Source: Deltaproteobacteria bacterium
Lineage (GTDB): Bacteria > Desulfobacterota > DSM-4660 > Desulfatiglandales > HGW-15
Assembly (NCBI GenBank): GCA_020342025.1
Contig: CP070840.1
Location: 184,780 to 190,362, forward strand
DNA: 5,583 nt
Direction of reading: 5' to 3'
The position numbers were made by a program, and so were the translations under genes. Positions 488 to 5,583 of the stretch are shown piece by piece; position 1 is the first letter of the stretch, and every line of letters starts with the position of its first letter. The notes under the pieces are model-generated. The model ran no database searches, was not told the origin of the DNA, and was given only the letters and a program-made list of their open reading frames with translations.

Positions 488-569
488 CACGTGAGCCTTT
501 GAAATTGAACACTTGCCAGGGTAAATAAGAGGATAGAGATTCGCGGTAGAGAGCGGGGGGGAGGATTTG

Positions 570-1226
570 ATGGCCAAACCGAGCGTGGCCCAGAAACAAC
601 CGCCGGGCGAGAAAAAGATCAAGAACAAGCGACTGGTGGAGAGACGCCAGCAGCAGATATCTGAGGCCGCCCTGAAACTGTTTGCCCAGAAGGGGTATCA
701 TAATACCACGGTGAGAGACATTGCGGGGCTCTCAAACATCAGCACGGGATCCGTCTATGACTACATACGGAACAAGGAGGATATCCTGTTCCTGGTCTCT
801 CAGAACTTCTTTGACAATCTGAAGAAAGAGGTGGAAAGGGCCCTGCAGGGCTTGAAGGATCCTTTGATGAAGCTCAAGGCCACCATAGAAGCGACCCTTA
901 CAGTCATTGATAATTTCCAGGAATATGTGCTGATCACCTACCGGGAATCAAAATACTTCAAGAAGCAGGATCTCATGGGGATCTTTCACCAGGAGGCCTT
1001 CTTCACGAATATCTTCTTAGAGATTATCGAAGAGGGAAATCGATTGGGGGTCTTCCATGTTCGCGAGCCTTTTGTGGTTGCCAATCTCCTCACACTCATG
1101 ACCCACTGTTGGGCTCTGAAGCGTTACAACTTAAAGGAATACAGTCTCTTTAACTTCAAAGAGACGCTCATCGGGCTTGTTCTGGATGGGATGATTAAAG
1201 AGGGGGAAGTTCCTAGGAAAGCCTAG
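570..1226 (+). CDS. TetR/AcrR-family transcriptional regulator
   Basis: This is a dimeric DNA-binding repressor, usually released from DNA by a small ligand; in acyl-CoA gene clusters the ligand is often an acyl-CoA. Counting 218 residues from ATG 570, the N-terminus is a basic, Lys/Arg-rich tail. A TetR_N domain spans about residues 25-75, with the signature ISEAALKLFAQKGYHNTTVRDI and a recognition-helix region ISTGSVYDYIRNKEDIL. The all-helical C-terminal domain (about 80-218), which would bind ligand and dimerise, is not distinctive enough to name the ligand. ATG 570 is preferred over the in-frame TTG at 567 because the GGAGGA ribosome-binding site (560-565) would almost touch the TTG. The gene lies on the same strand as the mutase large subunit, 187 nt upstream, making it the likely local regulator. 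It resembles FadR-type TetR proteins of fatty-acid and acyl-CoA metabolism, but that subgroup is an inference. Confidence 0.88.
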   Translation: MAKPSVAQKQPPGEKKIKNKRLVERRQQQISEAALKLFAQKGYHNTTVRDIAGLSNISTGSVYDYIRNKEDILFLVSQNFFDNLKKEVERALQGLKDPLMKLKATIEATLTVIDNFQEYVLITYRESKYFKKQDLMGIFHQEAFFTNIFLEIIEEGNRLGVFHVREPFVVANLLTLMTHCWALKRYNLKEYSLFNFKETLIGLVLDGMIKEGEVPRKA

Positions 1227-1233
1227 GGAGCCC

Positions 1234-1313
1234 TTGGAGTAATGGATTAGAAGATATAAATGAATGAGATTTCCCGTATTGATTTCCAATACTCCAGCAC
1301 TCCATTACTCCAG
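1234..1313. repeat. Octamer-repeat hairpin, copy A
   Basis: The left arm GGAGTAATGGA (1236-1246) is perfectly complementary to TCCATTACTCC (1301-1311). The right arm, read on the minus strand, consists of three tandem octamers of the form GGAGTNNT (1286-1312). The left arm is short, just over one octamer, so this copy looks truncated compared with copies B and C. It starts 8 nt after the regulator stop codon and lies between the regulator and the first mutase gene. Confidence 0.8.
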
Positions 1314-1400
1314 ACGGACATGGAATATGAATTCAGTTTGTAATGAGCAATCAGATCCACAAAATGTAAGTCCTGTAGCTTTTTGAACTCTTGGGAAGAA

Positions 1401-1413: not shown

Positions 1414-3096
1414 ATGGGAAATGACACAATTGATTATGATCGAAACTATGGTGCGTTAATCCGGGACAAAACCCAGAGCAACATCCCTGTCAAGCCCGTT
1501 TACGGGCCTGAGGATCTCCAGGGCCTAGATTATGGGAGGGACCTGGGAAATCCAGGAGAAGCGCCATTCACACGAGGGACTTATCCTCAGATGTATCGAA
1601 AGGCGCTCTGGTTAAAATCATTTATTGTCTGCTACGCAACACCAGAAGAGACCAACAAGGCTTTCAAGAGATATATTGCGGCCGGCCAGACAGGACTTCG
1701 GGTTCTGACGGATACTGCCACGCTTTCCGGCGTGGATCCCGATCATCCCCTGGCAAGATACGATATCATGTGTAACGGGAATCCCACATTTTCATTAACT
1801 GAATACGAAACGATGCTCGATGGGATATCTCTCGAGAATATCGATTATGAGTCAGCAAATTCCACGCCTTCTGGCAGCTTCTTCACTTACATATATCTTG
1901 TCTCTCTCATGGAGAAGCGAGGATCCGATATCTCAAGGCTGAGGGGAACGAATATCAATGACCCCATCCACGCCTTCATTGTTTATGGAACACCAGAGTT
2001 TCCTCCAGACCTGGCCAGAAAGGTTAATCAGGATCTCATAGAATTCGGAATCAAAAACACGCCCAATTACCATCCCTGCACACCCTGCGGATACGACATG
2101 CGAGATGCAGGAATCACTTCGGTTCAGGAAATGGCCTTTATTATGGGCAATGCCCTGCAGTACTACGGCGATGCCATCCGAGAGCGGGGCGTGAAATTTG
2201 ATGATTTCAAACCCATGGTCTTTTCCATGAGCTCGGAATCGGATTTCTTCGAGACTATCGCCAAGTTCCGTGCCACGAGACGGCTCTGGGCCAAATTAGC
2301 AAAAGAAAGGCTCGGCGCGACTAAGCCCCGTAACATGGCATGTCGAATAGGTATTCGCACGGCAGGCAATTCAATCTATCCCCAAAAGCCGATTAATAAC
2401 ACGGCCAGAATTACGATGCAGATTTTGGCTGCTGTTTTGGGTGGAGTCCAAGCGATTGATCCCTCTGGAATTGATGAGACCTTTGGCCTCCCCTCTCAGG
2501 AGTCGCGGATCTTCGAACTGGATTTGCAGCACATTATTGCCCATGAAGCCAATGTGCCACTCACCGCGGATCCGCTGGGAGGGTCTTATTATGTGGAATG
2601 GCTCACCAACAAGCTAGAGGACGAGACCGTTAAACTATTGGAAGAGATAGATGAGCAGGGCGGCATGTGGGAATGTCTCAAATCAGGTTGGCTTCAAAGA
2701 CAGTTCGACATGACAACCACGGAAATCCAGAATGAAATAAATACGTGCAAGAGGCTTATTGTGGGCGCCAATGCCTTTAAGGGCGATGACGGAGAAATCA
2801 GTAAAGCCATTGTGGATGGCGCTTACAAAGTACCACCGGATGAGAAAAGGTTTGGTGCTATCACCCGCGTTAAGGAACTGCGCAAGTCACGCGATCAGGA
2901 AAAGGTGAAACAGGCCTTGAAAACCCTGATTCAGGCGGTTCGGGAGGATCAGAACATTGTAAGACCCACCATGGAGGCTGCTAAAGTCTATGCGACTTTG
3001 GGAGAAATGGTGGGGACGATCCGGATGGCAAAAAGACTTCCGTATGATCCTTACGAGCGGATCCCGACGCCAGAATTTCTAAAGGACATTTTTTAA
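1414..3096 (+). CDS. Divergent B12-dependent acyl-CoA mutase-like large subunit (methylmalonyl-CoA mutase family; substrate unknown)
   Basis: Members of this family use adenosylcobalamin to rearrange carbon skeletons of acyl-CoA esters. The 560-residue length and lack of a C-terminal cobalamin domain fit a two-subunit enzyme; its partner is probably the gene at 3374. Family marks are TYPQMY (56-61), GTNINDP (178-184), CGYDMRDAG (225-233), FRATRRLWAKL (285-295), DETFGLPSQ (354-362) and DPLGGSYYVEW (386-396). The substrate site is heavily altered. Against P. shermanii MutB, Tyr89 is Ile71, Gln197 is Ile181, Arg207 is Tyr191, His244 is Asp228, His328 is Gly313 and Gln330 is Arg315; Arg82, Thr85 and Arg87 are Ala64, Leu67 and Ser69, and Arg283 is probably Met268. 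Gln361 and Glu370 are kept (Gln346, Glu355), and the latter lies near the deoxyadenosyl group. The frame is intact, with no sign of decay. It is therefore unlikely to be a true methylmalonyl-CoA mutase and may use another ester, or a non-CoA substrate. Family confidence is high; function is open. Confidence 0.9.
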   Translation: MGNDTIDYDRNYGALIRDKTQSNIPVKPVYGPEDLQGLDYGRDLGNPGEAPFTRGTYPQMYRKALWLKSFIVCYATPEETNKAFKRYIAAGQTGLRVLTDTATLSGVDPDHPLARYDIMCNGNPTFSLTEYETMLDGISLENIDYESANSTPSGSFFTYIYLVSLMEKRGSDISRLRGTNINDPIHAFIVYGTPEFPPDLARKVNQDLIEFGIKNTPNYHPCTPCGYDMRDAGITSVQEMAFIMGNALQYYGDAIRERGVKFDDFKPMVFSMSSESDFFETIAKFRATRRLWAKLAKERLGATKPRNMACRIGIRTAGNSIYPQKPINNTARITMQILAAVLGGVQAIDPSGIDETFGLPSQESRIFELDLQHIIAHEANVPLTADPLGGSYYVEWLTNKLEDETVKLLEEIDEQGGMWECLKSGWLQRQFDMTTTEIQNEINTCKRLIVGANAFKGDDGEISKAIVDGAYKVPPDEKRFGAITRVKELRKSRDQEKVKQALKTLIQAVREDQNIVRPTMEAAKVYATLGEMVGTIRMAKRLPYDPYERIPTPEFLKDIF

Positions 3097-3164: not shown

Positions 3165-3276
3165 GGGAGTGTTGGAGTATTGGAGTCATGGAGTACTGCC
3201 GTGAATCGAAGAAGAACAATATGTTTCTTGTTTTGAATTTTCAATACTCCATTACTCCATCACTCCATTAATCCAG
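3165..3276. repeat. Octamer-repeat hairpin, copy B (most complete)
   Basis: The left arm (3166-3198) is four tandem GGAGTNNT octamers: GGAGTGTT, GGAGTATT, GGAGTCAT, GGAGTACT. The right arm (3242-3276), read on the minus strand, is four more. The arms match at 26 of 33 positions across a 43-nt AT-rich loop, so the transcript should form a long imperfect hairpin. It lies between the first mutase large subunit and its cobalamin-binding partner, where it could affect transcript stability or relative expression. Confidence 0.85.
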
Positions 3277-3283
3277 AACACCG

Positions 3284-3319
3284 TTAAGCTGTGTTAAGGT
3301 GCTTTAAGTCTCCTTTAAG
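3284..3319. promoter_or_regulatory. Four phased TTAAG boxes upstream of the first cobalamin-binding subunit
   Basis: TTAAG occurs at 3284, 3294, 3304 and 3315, giving start-to-start spacings of 10, 10 and 11 bp, close to one helical turn, so all four face the same side of the DNA. The array ends 54 nt before the start codon at 3374. It could be a binding site for a cooperative regulator or a bent region affecting a local promoter. No recognised regulator motif was identified, and chance duplication is possible. Confidence 0.35.
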
Positions 3320-3373: not shown

Positions 3374-3811
3374 ATGGCGGCAGAAGAGAGAAAAATCAGG
3401 GTATTGATCGGCAAGGTAGGATTCGATCCACATGATAGGGGCATTCTAATCCTTTCTCACGGATTACGAAATGCGGGCATGGAAGTGATCTTCCTCGGGA
3501 AGTTCCAAACGGCAGAAGAAGTGGTTGCTTCTGCCATAGAGGAGAACGCGGACGTCATAGCACTGAGTGACCATTGCGGTGTTATGCGACTCATCGCCAA
3601 GGATGTGACGGATCTTCTACAAGAGAACAAGGCAACGGACATCTGTGTCGTTGCCGGTGGCATTATTCCGGAGGAGGATATTCCCCTGCTAGAGCAGATG
3701 GGCGTGACAGGGAATTACGGTATGGGGACGCCCATGGAGGAGATCGTTAATCACATTGTGGCGAGGGTCAATGATAGAGACGAGAAATTCAGGCTAAAAG
3801 CCGCTTCTTAA
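3374..3811 (+). CDS. Cobalamin-binding small subunit of the first mutase (atypical)
   Basis: This 145-residue protein is a stand-alone B12-binding Rossmann-like domain of the mutase family, which holds adenosylcobalamin with a histidine as lower axial ligand. The DxHxxG signature is DPHDRG (18-23), making His20 the predicted cobalt ligand, with the conserved Lys14 just before it. VVAGGIIP (92-99) and GMGTP (116-120) match the glycine-rich loops that hold the nucleotide tail. The SxL motif on the second strand is changed: S65-D66-H67 replaces Ser-x-Leu. A short charged tail follows the domain after residue 130. ATG 3374 is preceded by AGAGGG (3361-3366) at 7-nt spacing. The gene follows the divergent large subunit by 277 nt and is the natural partner for it; the gap contains a hairpin repeat and the TTAAG array. 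A free corrinoid protein of a methyltransferase is less likely because the closest motif match is the mutase type. Confidence 0.88.
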   Translation: MAAEERKIRVLIGKVGFDPHDRGILILSHGLRNAGMEVIFLGKFQTAEEVVASAIEENADVIALSDHCGVMRLIAKDVTDLLQENKATDICVVAGGIIPEEDIPLLEQMGVTGNYGMGTPMEEIVNHIVARVNDRDEKFRLKAAS

Positions 3812-3899: not shown

Positions 3900-4295
3900 T
3901 CATATTTGGGGTGTGATCCCAGATACGAATTGGATGATCTCTTTCAAGGGGGTTCCAGGCCCAAAGACCTCCTTGATGCCCGCCTTTTTGAGCTTCGGAA
4001 TATCGTCGGGGGGTATGGCGCCTCCGAGAACCACCATCTTCTCTTCTACCCCTTTTTTTCTGAGGGCGGTAACAACCTCTGGGGCCAATATCATGTGGTT
4101 TCCGGAAAGTGTGCTCAGCCCTATAAGGTCGGCATCCTCTTGTATGGCCGTTTCAACAATATTCTGGGGCATTTGATTCCCTATATAAATCACTTCCATC
4201 CCTGCATCGCGCAGGGCGCGCGCCACCACAATACTTCCCCTCCAGTGGGCATCCATACCAAGACGAGCAATTAAGATCCTAAGACGTTTTTTCAT
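3900..4295 (-). CDS. Cobalamin-binding small subunit of the second mutase
   Basis: This 131-residue B12-binding domain is closer to the canonical mutase type than its neighbour at 3374. It has DAHWRG (15-20, predicted cobalt ligand His17), an intact STLSGNH segment (61-67) carrying the SxL motif, VVLGGAIPP (88-96), and FGPGTP (111-116). The lysine normally found four residues before the DxHxxG aspartate is Arg11. ATG at 4295 (MKKRLRILIARLG) is chosen over the in-frame start at 4373 for two reasons: the extra 26 residues are encoded partly by repeat C and do not resemble the family, and an AAGG sits 9 nt before ATG 4295. The gene lies downstream of the second large subunit on the same strand, 212 nt away, and is convergent with the first small subunit across an 88-nt gap. 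It probably forms a two-subunit mutase with the 4508-5581 protein. Confidence 0.88.
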   Translation of the reverse strand: MKKRLRILIARLGMDAHWRGSIVVARALRDAGMEVIYIGNQMPQNIVETAIQEDADLIGLSTLSGNHMILAPEVVTALRKKGVEEKMVVLGGAIPPDDIPKLKKAGIKEVFGPGTPLKEIIQFVSGITPQI

Positions 4296-4350
4296 AGTGA
4301 CTTGCCTTATTCTGTAATTCGAAAAACAGGGTAAAAATTCCACCTTAATT

Positions 4351-4440
4351 GGAGTACTGGAGTGTTGGAGCACTGGAATGCTTAATTCAAATCAAAAGGA
4401 AAAACCATTACTCCAGTACACCAACACTCCATTACTCCAT
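4351..4440. repeat. Octamer-repeat hairpin, copy C
   Basis: The left arm (4351-4377) is GGAGTACT, GGAGTGTT, GGAGCACT plus GGA. The right arm (4405-4440), read on the minus strand, is GGAGTAAT, GGAGTGTT, GGTGTACT, GGAGTAAT. The arms are largely complementary around a 27-nt A-rich loop. It lies between the second mutase large subunit and its cobalamin-binding partner, the same relative position as copy B in the opposite operon. Confidence 0.85.
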
Positions 4441-4489
4441 GCGCCGAGTTTATTATCGCTGAAAGCCTGTCTTACCATGAGAGTTTAAC

Positions 4490-4503
4490 AAGCCTCTCGG
4501 CTT
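4490..4503 (-). other. Short stem-loop with GNRA tetraloop after the second large-subunit gene
   Basis: On the minus strand AAGCC-GAGA-GGCTT forms a 5-bp stem closed by a GAGA (GNRA-type) loop, starting 4 nt after the TGA stop of the mutase gene. No T-run follows, so it is not a clear terminator; it may be a processing or stability element, or incidental. Confidence 0.35.
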
Positions 4504-4507
4504 TGGT

Positions 4508-5581
4508 TCAAAACAACGGTGGATTCCATGTCCCGTAGTTTTTTTTCAAAGTCTGGGATATCTCTCCCTCTGTTAAATGGGCCTTTACCGATTCAACGAT
4601 GACTTCCATTAGGTTTCCATCCTCATCACAACACCGGGCAATCGCCTCAAGAGCATGCTCTGCCTCCAAAGGGCTTCTCTCTTTCTTGATCCTTTCTAAC
4701 TTTTTTTGCTGGACCTGAAGCGTCTCTGGAACCTCGAAGAGTTCTATGGGAAGTTTCTCATCCTCTATCTGATAGCAGTTTACTCCCACTATCGGCATTT
4801 CTCCAGAGTCAATGGCCTTTTGGTATTCGTATGCGGAATCTGAAATCTCTCGGTGTATCCAGCCCGTTTCTACGGCCTTTACAATGCCTCCCATTTGATC
4901 AATTCTTTCCAACAGGGCCCCGATCTTCTCCTCCAGTTGGTTGGTCAAAGACTCCACAAAATAGGATCCCCCAAGGGGATCTACCGTGTGGGTCACTCGG
5001 GTCTCAAGTTGTAAGATCTGCTGTGTCCTAAGGGCGGTAAGTGAAGAGAGCTCAGTGGGCGTACAGAGCGCTTCATCGTAGGCATCCACGTGGACGGATT
5101 GTGCGCCTCCCAGTACGGCCGAAAGAGCCTGATAGCCAGCTCTTGCAATGTTGTTCAGGGGCTGCTGTGCCGTCAGGGAAACACCGGACGTCTGGACATG
5201 GAATCTCAGGGAGCGCGCGCGGGGGTTTTTGGCCTTGAATCGTTTTTTCATCAATCTGGCCCACAGTCTTCTGGCTGCCCTATACTTGGCGATCTCTTCA
5301 AAAAAGTCGCTGTGAGCAGAGAAAAAAAAGCTGAGCCTTGGGGCGAAGCTGTCCACATCGAGACCGCGCCTAATAAGTTCCTCTGAACACCCCACAGCAT
5401 TGGCGATCACAAAGGCCACTTCTTGAATAGCAGTGCACCCCGCTTCTCGGTAATTGTAACCGGCGAAACTTATGGGGTTCCACCTAGGAGCGTGCTTTGC
5501 ACAGTATTCAATAGCGTCGCACCTTAGCTTAAAGGAGAATTTTGGGGGTAAGACCTCCGGGGCAATGCAAATGGTTGTCTC
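4508..5581 (-). CDS. Second B12-dependent acyl-CoA mutase large subunit, 5' end outside window
   Basis: The last 357 codons of a methylmalonyl-CoA-mutase-family large subunit are present, open to the right edge; the GTG at 5419 is internal. The protein ends soon after the catalytic barrel with no cobalamin domain, so it needs a separate small subunit, probably the one encoded at 3900-4295. Visible family features are WNPISFAGYNYREAG (34-48), FAPRLSFFF (79-87), RRLWARL (104-110), SLRFHVQTSG (124-133), a DE pair (169-170), a DPLGGSYFVE motif and IVGVN. CoA-contact residues of P. shermanii MutB are kept: Arg283 (Arg82 here), Arg326, His328 and Gln330 (Arg126, His128, Gln130), Gln361 (Gln161) and Glu370 (Glu170). 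However, His244 is Asn43, and Arg207, which binds the methylmalonyl carboxylate, aligns with Ile6. Residues matching Tyr89 and Gln197 lie outside the window. It is most likely an acyl-CoA mutase for a substrate other than methylmalonyl-CoA. Confidence 0.9.
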   Translation of the reverse strand, partial: ETTICIAPEVLPPKFSFKLRCDAIEYCAKHAPRWNPISFAGYNYREAGCTAIQEVAFVIANAVGCSEELIRRGLDVDSFAPRLSFFFSAHSDFFEEIAKYRAARRLWARLMKKRFKAKNPRARSLRFHVQTSGVSLTAQQPLNNIARAGYQALSAVLGGAQSVHVDAYDEALCTPTELSSLTALRTQQILQLETRVTHTVDPLGGSYFVESLTNQLEEKIGALLERIDQMGGIVKAVETGWIHREISDSAYEYQKAIDSGEMPIVGVNCYQIEDEKLPIELFEVPETLQVQQKKLERIKKERSPLEAEHALEAIARCCDEDGNLMEVIVESVKAHLTEGEISQTLKKNYGTWNPPLF

Positions 5582-5583
5582 CA

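What the first reader, a model, noticed from the sequence alone, without database searches (positions are those of the whole stretch)
1414..3096. Mutase large subunit with an almost wholly rebuilt substrate and CoA site
The TIM-barrel signatures and the adenosyl-side Glu are kept. Aligned by eye to P. shermanii MutB, the catalytic His244 is Asp228, Arg207 is Tyr191, Gln197 is Ile181, Tyr89 is Ile71, His328 is Gly313 and Gln330 is Arg315; Arg82, Thr85 and Arg87 are Ala, Leu and Ser. Known relatives change only one or two of these: isobutyryl-CoA mutase has Phe and Gln at positions 89 and 207, and 2-hydroxyisobutyryl-CoA mutase has Ile and Gln. Ile71 matches the hydroxyisobutyryl type at that one position. 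The frame is undamaged and a cobalamin subunit is nearby, so this looks like a functional B12 mutase with a new substrate, perhaps one not held as a standard CoA thioester.
Basis: partly seen in the sequence, partly recalled or inferred. Interest (0 to 1): 0.72.

Follow-up and report, generated by a model that had tools for sequence, protein, structure and literature searches.

The report
B12 mutase with rebuilt active site
This gene belongs to a conserved, apparently undescribed branch of the vitamin-B12 mutase family in which most of the residues that normally hold the coenzyme-A substrate are replaced by a fixed set of charged residues, so it is probably a working B12 enzyme with an unknown, possibly non-CoA, substrate.

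Summary
In detail: every named substitution in the 560-residue large subunit (1414-3096) is confirmed against P. shermanii MutB. It is not decay. Over 235 full-length homologs (47% or more identical to the window), MutB S114 is Arg in 235, S164 Glu in 235, H244 Asp in 233, Q330 Arg in 232, H364 Asp in 232, while adenosyl-side E370 stays in 233. R82A alone is not clade-wide. The sampled clade is monophyletic (100/100) and separate from the MCM and HCM rows; dN/dS is 0.04-0.13 in 7 of 8 pairs. It has its own cobalamin subunit and, in six relatives, an adenosyltransferase and a MeaB-like gene beside it. So it is very probably a functional AdoCbl enzyme with a new specificity. Of 13 positions recalled as CoA/acyl contacts only 2-4 survive; homologs of the window's second mutase, also odd at H244, keep 7-9. 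Arg and Glu stand where MCM has Ser114 and Ser164, which suggests that CoA no longer threads the barrel. Against that, several loci carry acyl-CoA enzymes. The substrate is not identified. Nine paper searches listed no description.

The parts
567..1226 (+). TetR-type regulator, possible regulator of the mutase
   Evidence: TetR_N and TetR_C_24; 71% identical TetR just upstream of the orthologous mutase in L003, other TetR genes nearby in L004 and L053
1414..3096 (+). large subunit of the two-part AdoCbl mutase (called D clade here)
1603..1626 (+). residues 64-71 ALWLKSFI, in place of MutB R82-P-W-T85-I-R87-Q-Y89
1699..1701 (+). R96, in place of MutB S114 (Arg in 235 of 235 homologs)
1843..1851 (+). 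D144-Y-E146, in place of MutB S162-x-S164 (Glu146 in 235 of 235; Asp144 in 114 of the first 115 rows, not among the residues seen in the second 120)
1954..1956 (+). I181, in place of MutB Q197
1984..1986 (+). Y191, in place of MutB R207
2095..2097 (+). D228, in place of MutB H244 (Asp in 233 of 235)
2236..2238 (+). E275, in place of MutB G291 (Glu in 231 of 235)
2350..2358 (+). G313-I-R315, in place of MutB H328-S-Q330
2458..2478 (+). D349-P-S351-G-I-D-E355: MutB H364 and N366 replaced, adenosyl-side E370 kept
3374..3811 (+). cobalamin-binding small subunit of the D-clade mutase; DxHxxG kept, SxL motif changed to SDH
   Evidence: PF02310; 'LSDH(C/T)G' in 10 of 10 D-linked subunits printed, this one included
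3900..4373 (-). second cobalamin subunit (a likelier start is the ATG near 4295), probable partner of the second mutase
   Evidence: PF02310; 76% to the subunit beside the orthologous mutase in L056
4508..5583 (-). second mutase large subunit, cut by the window edge ('YN type': H244N, R207I, CoA set kept)
   Evidence: PF01642 439 bits; residues; 112 of 120 listed homologs tabulated

Best explanation
The gene encodes the substrate-binding TIM-barrel subunit of a two-part AdoCbl-dependent radical enzyme. It keeps E370 on the adenosyl side and has a partner subunit with the DxHxxG cobalt-ligand loop, so it should make the adenosyl radical and abstract a hydrogen as MCM does. The substrate pocket is rebuilt: an invariant Arg96 and Glu146 stand where MCM has Ser114 and Ser164, and D228, E275, R315 and D349 replace H244, G291, Q330 and H364. 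The most likely reading is that the pantetheine channel is closed and that the enzyme rearranges a small polar substrate not threaded as CoA, held by these charged residues. Shown: the residues, their conservation, the clade, the neighbouring B12 subunit, the predicted fold. Inferred: catalysis, the pairing of the charged residues, the closed channel, the substrate class.
For: All seven core residues (R114, E164, D244, E291, R330, D364, E370 in MutB numbers) are kept in 228 of 235 homologs. In three of the seven exceptions (P0070; P0100 and P0113, which are 74% alike) positions 291, 330 and 364 differ together, as an interacting set would; since P0070 and P0100 are also the two deepest branches of the D clade in the tree, these may instead be older states. 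Arg114 and Glu164 are present even there. dN/dS 0.04-0.13 in 7 of 8 pairs. D clade monophyletic 100/100 in 25 sampled rows, stem about 0.98 changes per column. Six of six loci from the order of G309 keep mutase, B12 subunit, CobA-type adenosyltransferase and MeaB-like gene in a row. Of 13 recalled CoA/acyl positions the D clade keeps 2-4 (median 3), YN homologs 7-9, two HCM-type genes 10. [quoted passage not shown] 23 positions that I took as barrel-lining average 0.82 conservation against 0.70 over the protein in 49 representatives, reached by 48 of 10,000 random draws; I chose them after seeing the columns, so this test is partly circular.
Against: Acyl-CoA enzymes stand near several members: acyl-CoA dehydrogenase and enoyl-CoA hydratase in L004, enoyl-CoA hydratase in L002, thiolase in L052, carboxyltransferase and two acyl-CoA dehydrogenases in L069. 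MeaB serves acyl-CoA mutases in the cases I know (recall). Some CoA-region residues stay: Y75, M78, mostly a basic residue at 234, and R or K at 82 in most homologs. Other recalled corrin-side contacts are changed (F117, A139).
Confidence: 0.5

Rival explanations
1. It is still an acyl-CoA mutase: CoA binds by a changed set of contacts, and the new charged residues handle an unusual acyl group (for example one with an amino, hydroxyl or second carboxyl group).
For: Acyl-CoA dehydrogenase, enoyl-CoA hydratase, thiolase and carboxyltransferase neighbours in L004, L002, L052, L069; nearness to mutases that keep the CoA set in the window, L004 and L002; MeaB-like gene; R or K at 82 and Y75, M78 kept in most homologs.
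Against: Thr85, Arg87, Ser114, Gln197 and His244 are absent from all 235 homologs, and the R283-S285 stretch is shortened, while the equally odd YN type keeps T85, R87, Q197, R283 and S285 in 112 of 112.
Confidence: 0.33
2. It carries out an elimination (dehydratase or ammonia-lyase type) on a polyol or amino alcohol rather than a skeletal rearrangement; the acidic residues hold a metal ion or an ammonium group.
For: Four clade-wide new acidic positions (146, 228, 275, 349) beside two new Arg (96, 315); FAD_binding_4 flavoproteins and a CCG iron-sulfur protein upstream in L060.
Against: Only one locus seen has those flavoproteins; the closest structural matches are mutases; resemblance to diol dehydratase or ethanolamine ammonia-lyase pockets is recalled only.
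Confidence: 0.07
3. It is a non-catalytic barrel like the MutA subunit of MCM, paired with another mutase.
For: H244 and R207 are lost; in the window, L004, L053, L002 and L055 another PF01642 gene lies near.
Against: It has a B12 subunit beside it; the new site is kept, not relaxed; it scores 125 bits against the 617-bit cut-off of the small-subunit model; in G901 it is the only PF01642 gene found (completeness of that genome not told).
Confidence: 0.06

Closest known systems
2-hydroxyisobutyryl-CoA mutase (PDB 4r3u)
   Different: HCM-type genes keep H244, Gln207 and 10 of 13 recalled CoA/acyl positions; the window keeps 3; separate groups on the tree
Methylmalonyl-CoA mutase (MutB, ScpA, human MMUT)
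   Different: R207, H244, Y89, Q197, H328, Q330, S114, S164 all replaced; 27-31% identical
Isobutyryl-CoA mutase IcmF
   Same: PF01642 barrel
   Different: 126 bits against a 1500-bit cut-off; 22-23% identical; no fused GTPase
Glutamate mutase (PDB 1cb7)
   Different: 14% identical; profile match too weak to equate residues (hhalign probability 17%); so an analogy only
The window's second mutase (YN type)
   Same: Not identified with any characterised mutase here; also altered at positions 89, 114, 207, 244
   Different: Keeps T85, R87, Q197, R283, S285, H328, Q330 in 112 of 112 homologs, so probably CoA-type

Membership tests
MM_CoA_mutase superfamily (PF01642 / TIGR00641) | profile score over curated cut-off | tested here: met
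   468 bits against 22.1; 417 against 304
MM_CoA_mutase superfamily (PF01642 / TIGR00641) | TIM barrel plus cobalamin subunit with DxHxxG | tested here: met
   predicted fold, PF02310 and motif
Acyl-CoA mutases as an enzyme class | CoA/acyl-contact residues (13 positions recalled from UniProt P11653/P22033, no call) | tested here: not met
   2-4 of 13 kept in 235 homologs; window 3
Acyl-CoA mutases as an enzyme class | binds and turns over an acyl-CoA | not testable with these tools
   needs protein
Methylmalonyl-CoA mutase | R207, H244, Y89 | tested here: not met
   Y191, D228, I71; 332 bits against 876 for NF006944
2-hydroxyisobutyryl-CoA mutase | Ile89 with Gln207 and H244; same clade as HCM | tested here: not met
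   Ile yes, but Tyr and Asp; outside the group of two HCM-type genes and L013
Isobutyryl-CoA mutase (fused IcmF) | NF045497 model; Phe89/Gln207 (recalled) | tested here: not met
   126 bits against 1500; Ile/Tyr. IcmA was not in the tree
ECM, PCM, IaaG, McmL | clustering with the characterised sequence | not tested
   no such sequence was fetched
Inactive MutA-type subunit | TIGR00642 small-subunit model | tested here: not met
   125 bits against 617
Glutamate mutase | GlmE profile; arginine claw | tested here: inconclusive

The most novel reading that the evidence does not exclude
The D clade is the first branch of the methylmalonyl-CoA mutase fold that has given up coenzyme A: its barrel, once a channel for pantetheine, is closed by an invariant Arg-Glu pair, and an ionic pocket formed independently of glutamate mutase holds a free small-molecule substrate for a B12 radical reaction not yet described.
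Probability: 0.4. Interest if true: 0.82.

Novelty: new variant of a known kind. Interest (0 to 1): 0.64.

Why it matters
AdoCbl carbon-skeleton mutases are few and each defines a metabolic route. A conserved clade, seen in metagenome-assembled genomes titled Dehalococcoides, Rokubacteria and Desulfobacterales, with a different but fixed active site implies a reaction that may never have been assayed. The source names seen for it are 'methylmalonyl-CoA mutase (family protein)' or 'acyl-CoA mutase large subunit family protein', so metabolic models may assign it the wrong reaction. If CoA is not used, it would show how a channel barrel can turn into a closed pocket while keeping the radical chemistry.

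Tried and rejected
Sequence decay: rejected. Misalignment of H244 or R207: HMMER and MAFFT agree for the window; the blocks around 84-89, 158-170, 240-250, 328-334 and 361-376 are gap-free, and only the place of the deletion in 283-285 varies. In the YN type there is a one-residue insertion before 207; one search put Cys or Thr there in some rows, searches put Ile or Val for the window copy and its close homologs, and I use the latter.

Fe-S site from C73, C120, C222, C225: in the window's subclade these are Cys in 33, 32, 32 and 32 of 33 rows, but in the other 202 rows only C120 is common (194); not clade-wide, left open. Residue correspondence to glutamate mutase through hhalign: too weak; the two GlmE-like proteins used came from G001 and are 36% alike. 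Obligatory partnership with another mutase: not supported, since G901 has one PF01642 match and no second mutase shows among the genes called in L054, L060 and L068-L071 (these stretches are 11-20 kb). Plasmids: 426 records match, the top row at 38% identity; phage set: two records at 32% and 25%. RNA families: none in the window at gathering score. Promoter-like sites: 7 found, 7.1 expected; terminator-like 10 found, 5.7 expected. Literature: nine searches; I saw their listings and abstract openings, and passages of PMC11599936, PMC9545868, PMC10356863 and PMC10481361; none of what I saw describes this clade. The library lacks most subscription journals.

Limits: genome counts scored at most the three best first-look candidates per genome and may be low. 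Genes in relatives were called with my own codon-usage script, not a standard caller. The tree held a misframed L001 row and was replaced (L001 refitted, P0001, L020 and L033 left out). The class and order names of the G genomes are not told by the tool.

Full report
WHAT IS THERE. The window (5583 bases) holds the end of a RecO-like gene (2-226), a TetR regulator (567-1226), the mutase of the finding (1414-3096, 560 aa), a cobalamin subunit (3374-3811), and, on the minus strand, a second cobalamin subunit (3900-4373) and a second mutase cut by the window's end (4508-5583). The mutase is a clear PF01642/TIGR00641 member but far under the cut-offs of the three specific models it matches: 332 of 876 bits for MCM, 126 of 1500 for IcmF, 125 of 617 for the MCM small subunit.

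THE OBSERVATION. There are more: S114R, S162D, S164E, T166A, G291E, H364D, N366S, F378E, and a one-residue deletion in the R283-L284-S285 stretch (R283 in MAFFT, S285 in HMMER). The partner's cobalamin motif DxHxxG is intact, but its SxL motif reads SDH(C/T)G in 10 of 10 D-linked subunits printed, against a normal STL in the window's second subunit.

IT IS A CONSERVED CLADE. One search listed 120 homologs (52-100% identity; the first, P0001, is nearly identical to the window's own protein); 115 passed my filter of 530-600 aa. One search, started from a 49%-identical member (L060), listed 120 more, none shared with the first list, all used. Identity to the window is 47% or more in every row. 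Over these 235 rows: R114 235, E164 235, D244 233 (N in 2), E291 231, R330 232, D364 232, E370 233, and no residue at 283 in 235 by MAFFT. Two changes are not clade-wide: R82 is Arg in 51 of 115 and 115 of 120, Ala in 11 and 1; S162 is Asp in 114 of 115 but Val, Ile or His in the second 120. All seven core residues are kept in 228 of 235. Of the seven exceptions, P0070, P0100 and P0113 differ at 291, 330 and 364 together. P0100 and P0113 are 74% alike, P0070 and P0100 48%; P0070 and P0100 are the two deepest D rows in the tree. So either these three positions form one ionic set, or they were fixed after the deepest splits; Arg114 and Glu164 are present in all.

CONSERVATION TEST AND SELECTION. 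At 80% clustering there are 49 representatives (lowest pairwise identity 40.5%). 23 positions that I judged to line the barrel average 0.82 conservation against 0.70 overall, reached by 48 of 10,000 random draws; with all 235 rows 0.88 against 0.75, 6 of 10,000. The positions were picked after I had seen, so the test is partly circular. dN/dS is 0.04-0.13 in seven of eight pairs; the window/L003 pair is saturated.

PHYLOGENY. In a 57-row tree (IQ-TREE, LG+C20+F+G4) the 25 D-clade rows (a sample) form one side of a branch with 100/100 support and a stem of about 0.98 changes per column; the MCM rows (MutB, ScpA, L005), the HCM-type rows (Methylibium PM1, Xanthobacter Py2, L013), the YN type (8) and the RN type (2) are separate groups.

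AN INTERNAL CONTROL. The window's second mutase is also odd. Of 120 listed homologs, 112 were full length (8 dropped). They have Y89L, S114N and H244N in 112 of 112 and Val or Ile at 207 in 112 of 112, yet keep T85, R87, Q197, R283, S285, H328 and Q330 in 112 of 112. The window copy has Ile at 207. So a mutase with a changed acyl site keeps the CoA set; the D clade does not. Of 13 positions recalled as CoA/acyl contacts (UniProt, not from a call), the D clade keeps 2-4, YN homologs 7-9, two HCM-type genes 10, and the AH-type mutase of L004 12. Not all other mutases keep it: L030 keeps 1 and L029 keeps 4.

CONTEXT. In the order of G309, 6 of 84 genomes carry the clade, and all six loci (L054, L055, L068-L071) show mutase, B12 subunit, CobA-type adenosyltransferase and a MeaB-like gene in a row. 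Pfam was run on the L054 adenosyltransferase and on MeaB genes of L060 and L055 13906-14904; the rest were assigned by BLAST similarity to these. In L060 flavoproteins of the FAD_binding_4 type and a CCG iron-sulfur protein lie upstream, a B12 subunit and MeaB downstream. In the Rokubacteria locus L004 one run of genes holds TetR, acyl-CoA dehydrogenase, a mutase with R243/N244, the D-clade mutase, B12 subunits (assigned by similarity), a YN-type mutase, enoyl-CoA hydratase and a mutase with A243/H244. L053 has the D pair facing another unusual mutase and B12 subunit, the same layout as the window. L001 has a 2-hydroxyacyl-CoA dehydratase-like gene upstream and a corrinoid protein with a URO-D-type gene downstream. 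No single pathway emerges; acyl-CoA enzymes recur, which is the chief evidence against a non-CoA substrate. G901 has no other PF01642 match.

DISTRIBUTION. It is rare: 3 of 393 (class of G001), 4 of 95 (phylum of G004), 2 of 389 (class of G003), 6 of 84 (order of G309), 2 of 194 (order of G576), 1 of 395 (phylum of G576), 1 of 400 (phylum of G001). The sets overlap; 13 different genomes in all. Titles of the four loci from named contigs: Dehalococcoides sp. JdFR-54, two Candidatus Rokubacteria, Desulfobacterales bin60, all MAGs.

HOW IT PROBABLY WORKS. Shown: residues, clade, predicted fold, neighbouring B12 subunit, purifying selection. Inferred: adenosyl radical formation as in MCM; a pocket made of R96/E146 and D228, E275, R315, D349; a substrate that is not threaded CoA (about even odds), against an acyl-CoA bound in a changed way (about one in three). 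The substrate itself cannot be named from this evidence.

VERDICT. A real, well-conserved branch of the AdoCbl mutase family with a rebuilt active site; new variant of a known kind. Nine paper searches listed no description; they cover open-licence PMC papers only.

Noticed in passing
window 3900-5583 (-): Second B12 subunit and second mutase with H244N: a conserved, probably CoA-type mutase subfamily (112 of 112 full-length homologs Asn244, Leu89, Asn114), not identified with any characterised one.
   Followed up: partly
window 1279-1320, 3166-3291, 4350-4455: Tandem octamers (TCCA type in three intergenic spots, the complementary GGAGT type in two). One cluster lies in the 277-base gap between mutase and B12 subunit, genes that lie at most 15 bases apart in L003, L052, L053 and L055 (L002 has a gap of about 250).
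   Followed up: partly
L004 3835-14401: A run with four different PF01642 mutases, B12 subunits, acyl-CoA dehydrogenase and enoyl-CoA hydratase in one Rokubacteria locus.
   Followed up: partly
G485 (genome of L052): 19 PF01642 matches in one 5.4 Mb genome; one of them is a 182-codon piece at a contig end.
   Followed up: no
L004 5631-7292 and L029: A further mutase type with Arg243/Asn244 and a gap over the R207 region.
   Followed up: no
L030, L053 9697-11778: A separate pair of PF01642 proteins on a long branch; L030 has Tyr244, Ile197, Asp114 and Thr328 and keeps 1 of 13 recalled CoA positions.
   Followed up: no
L075, L077 (genome G001): Two neighbouring GlmE-like (PF06368) proteins only 36% alike, perhaps also of unusual specificity.
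   Followed up: no
window 3374-3811: The usual cobalamin SxL motif is SDH in 10 of 10 D-linked B12 subunits printed, perhaps for a different lower ligand.
   Followed up: no
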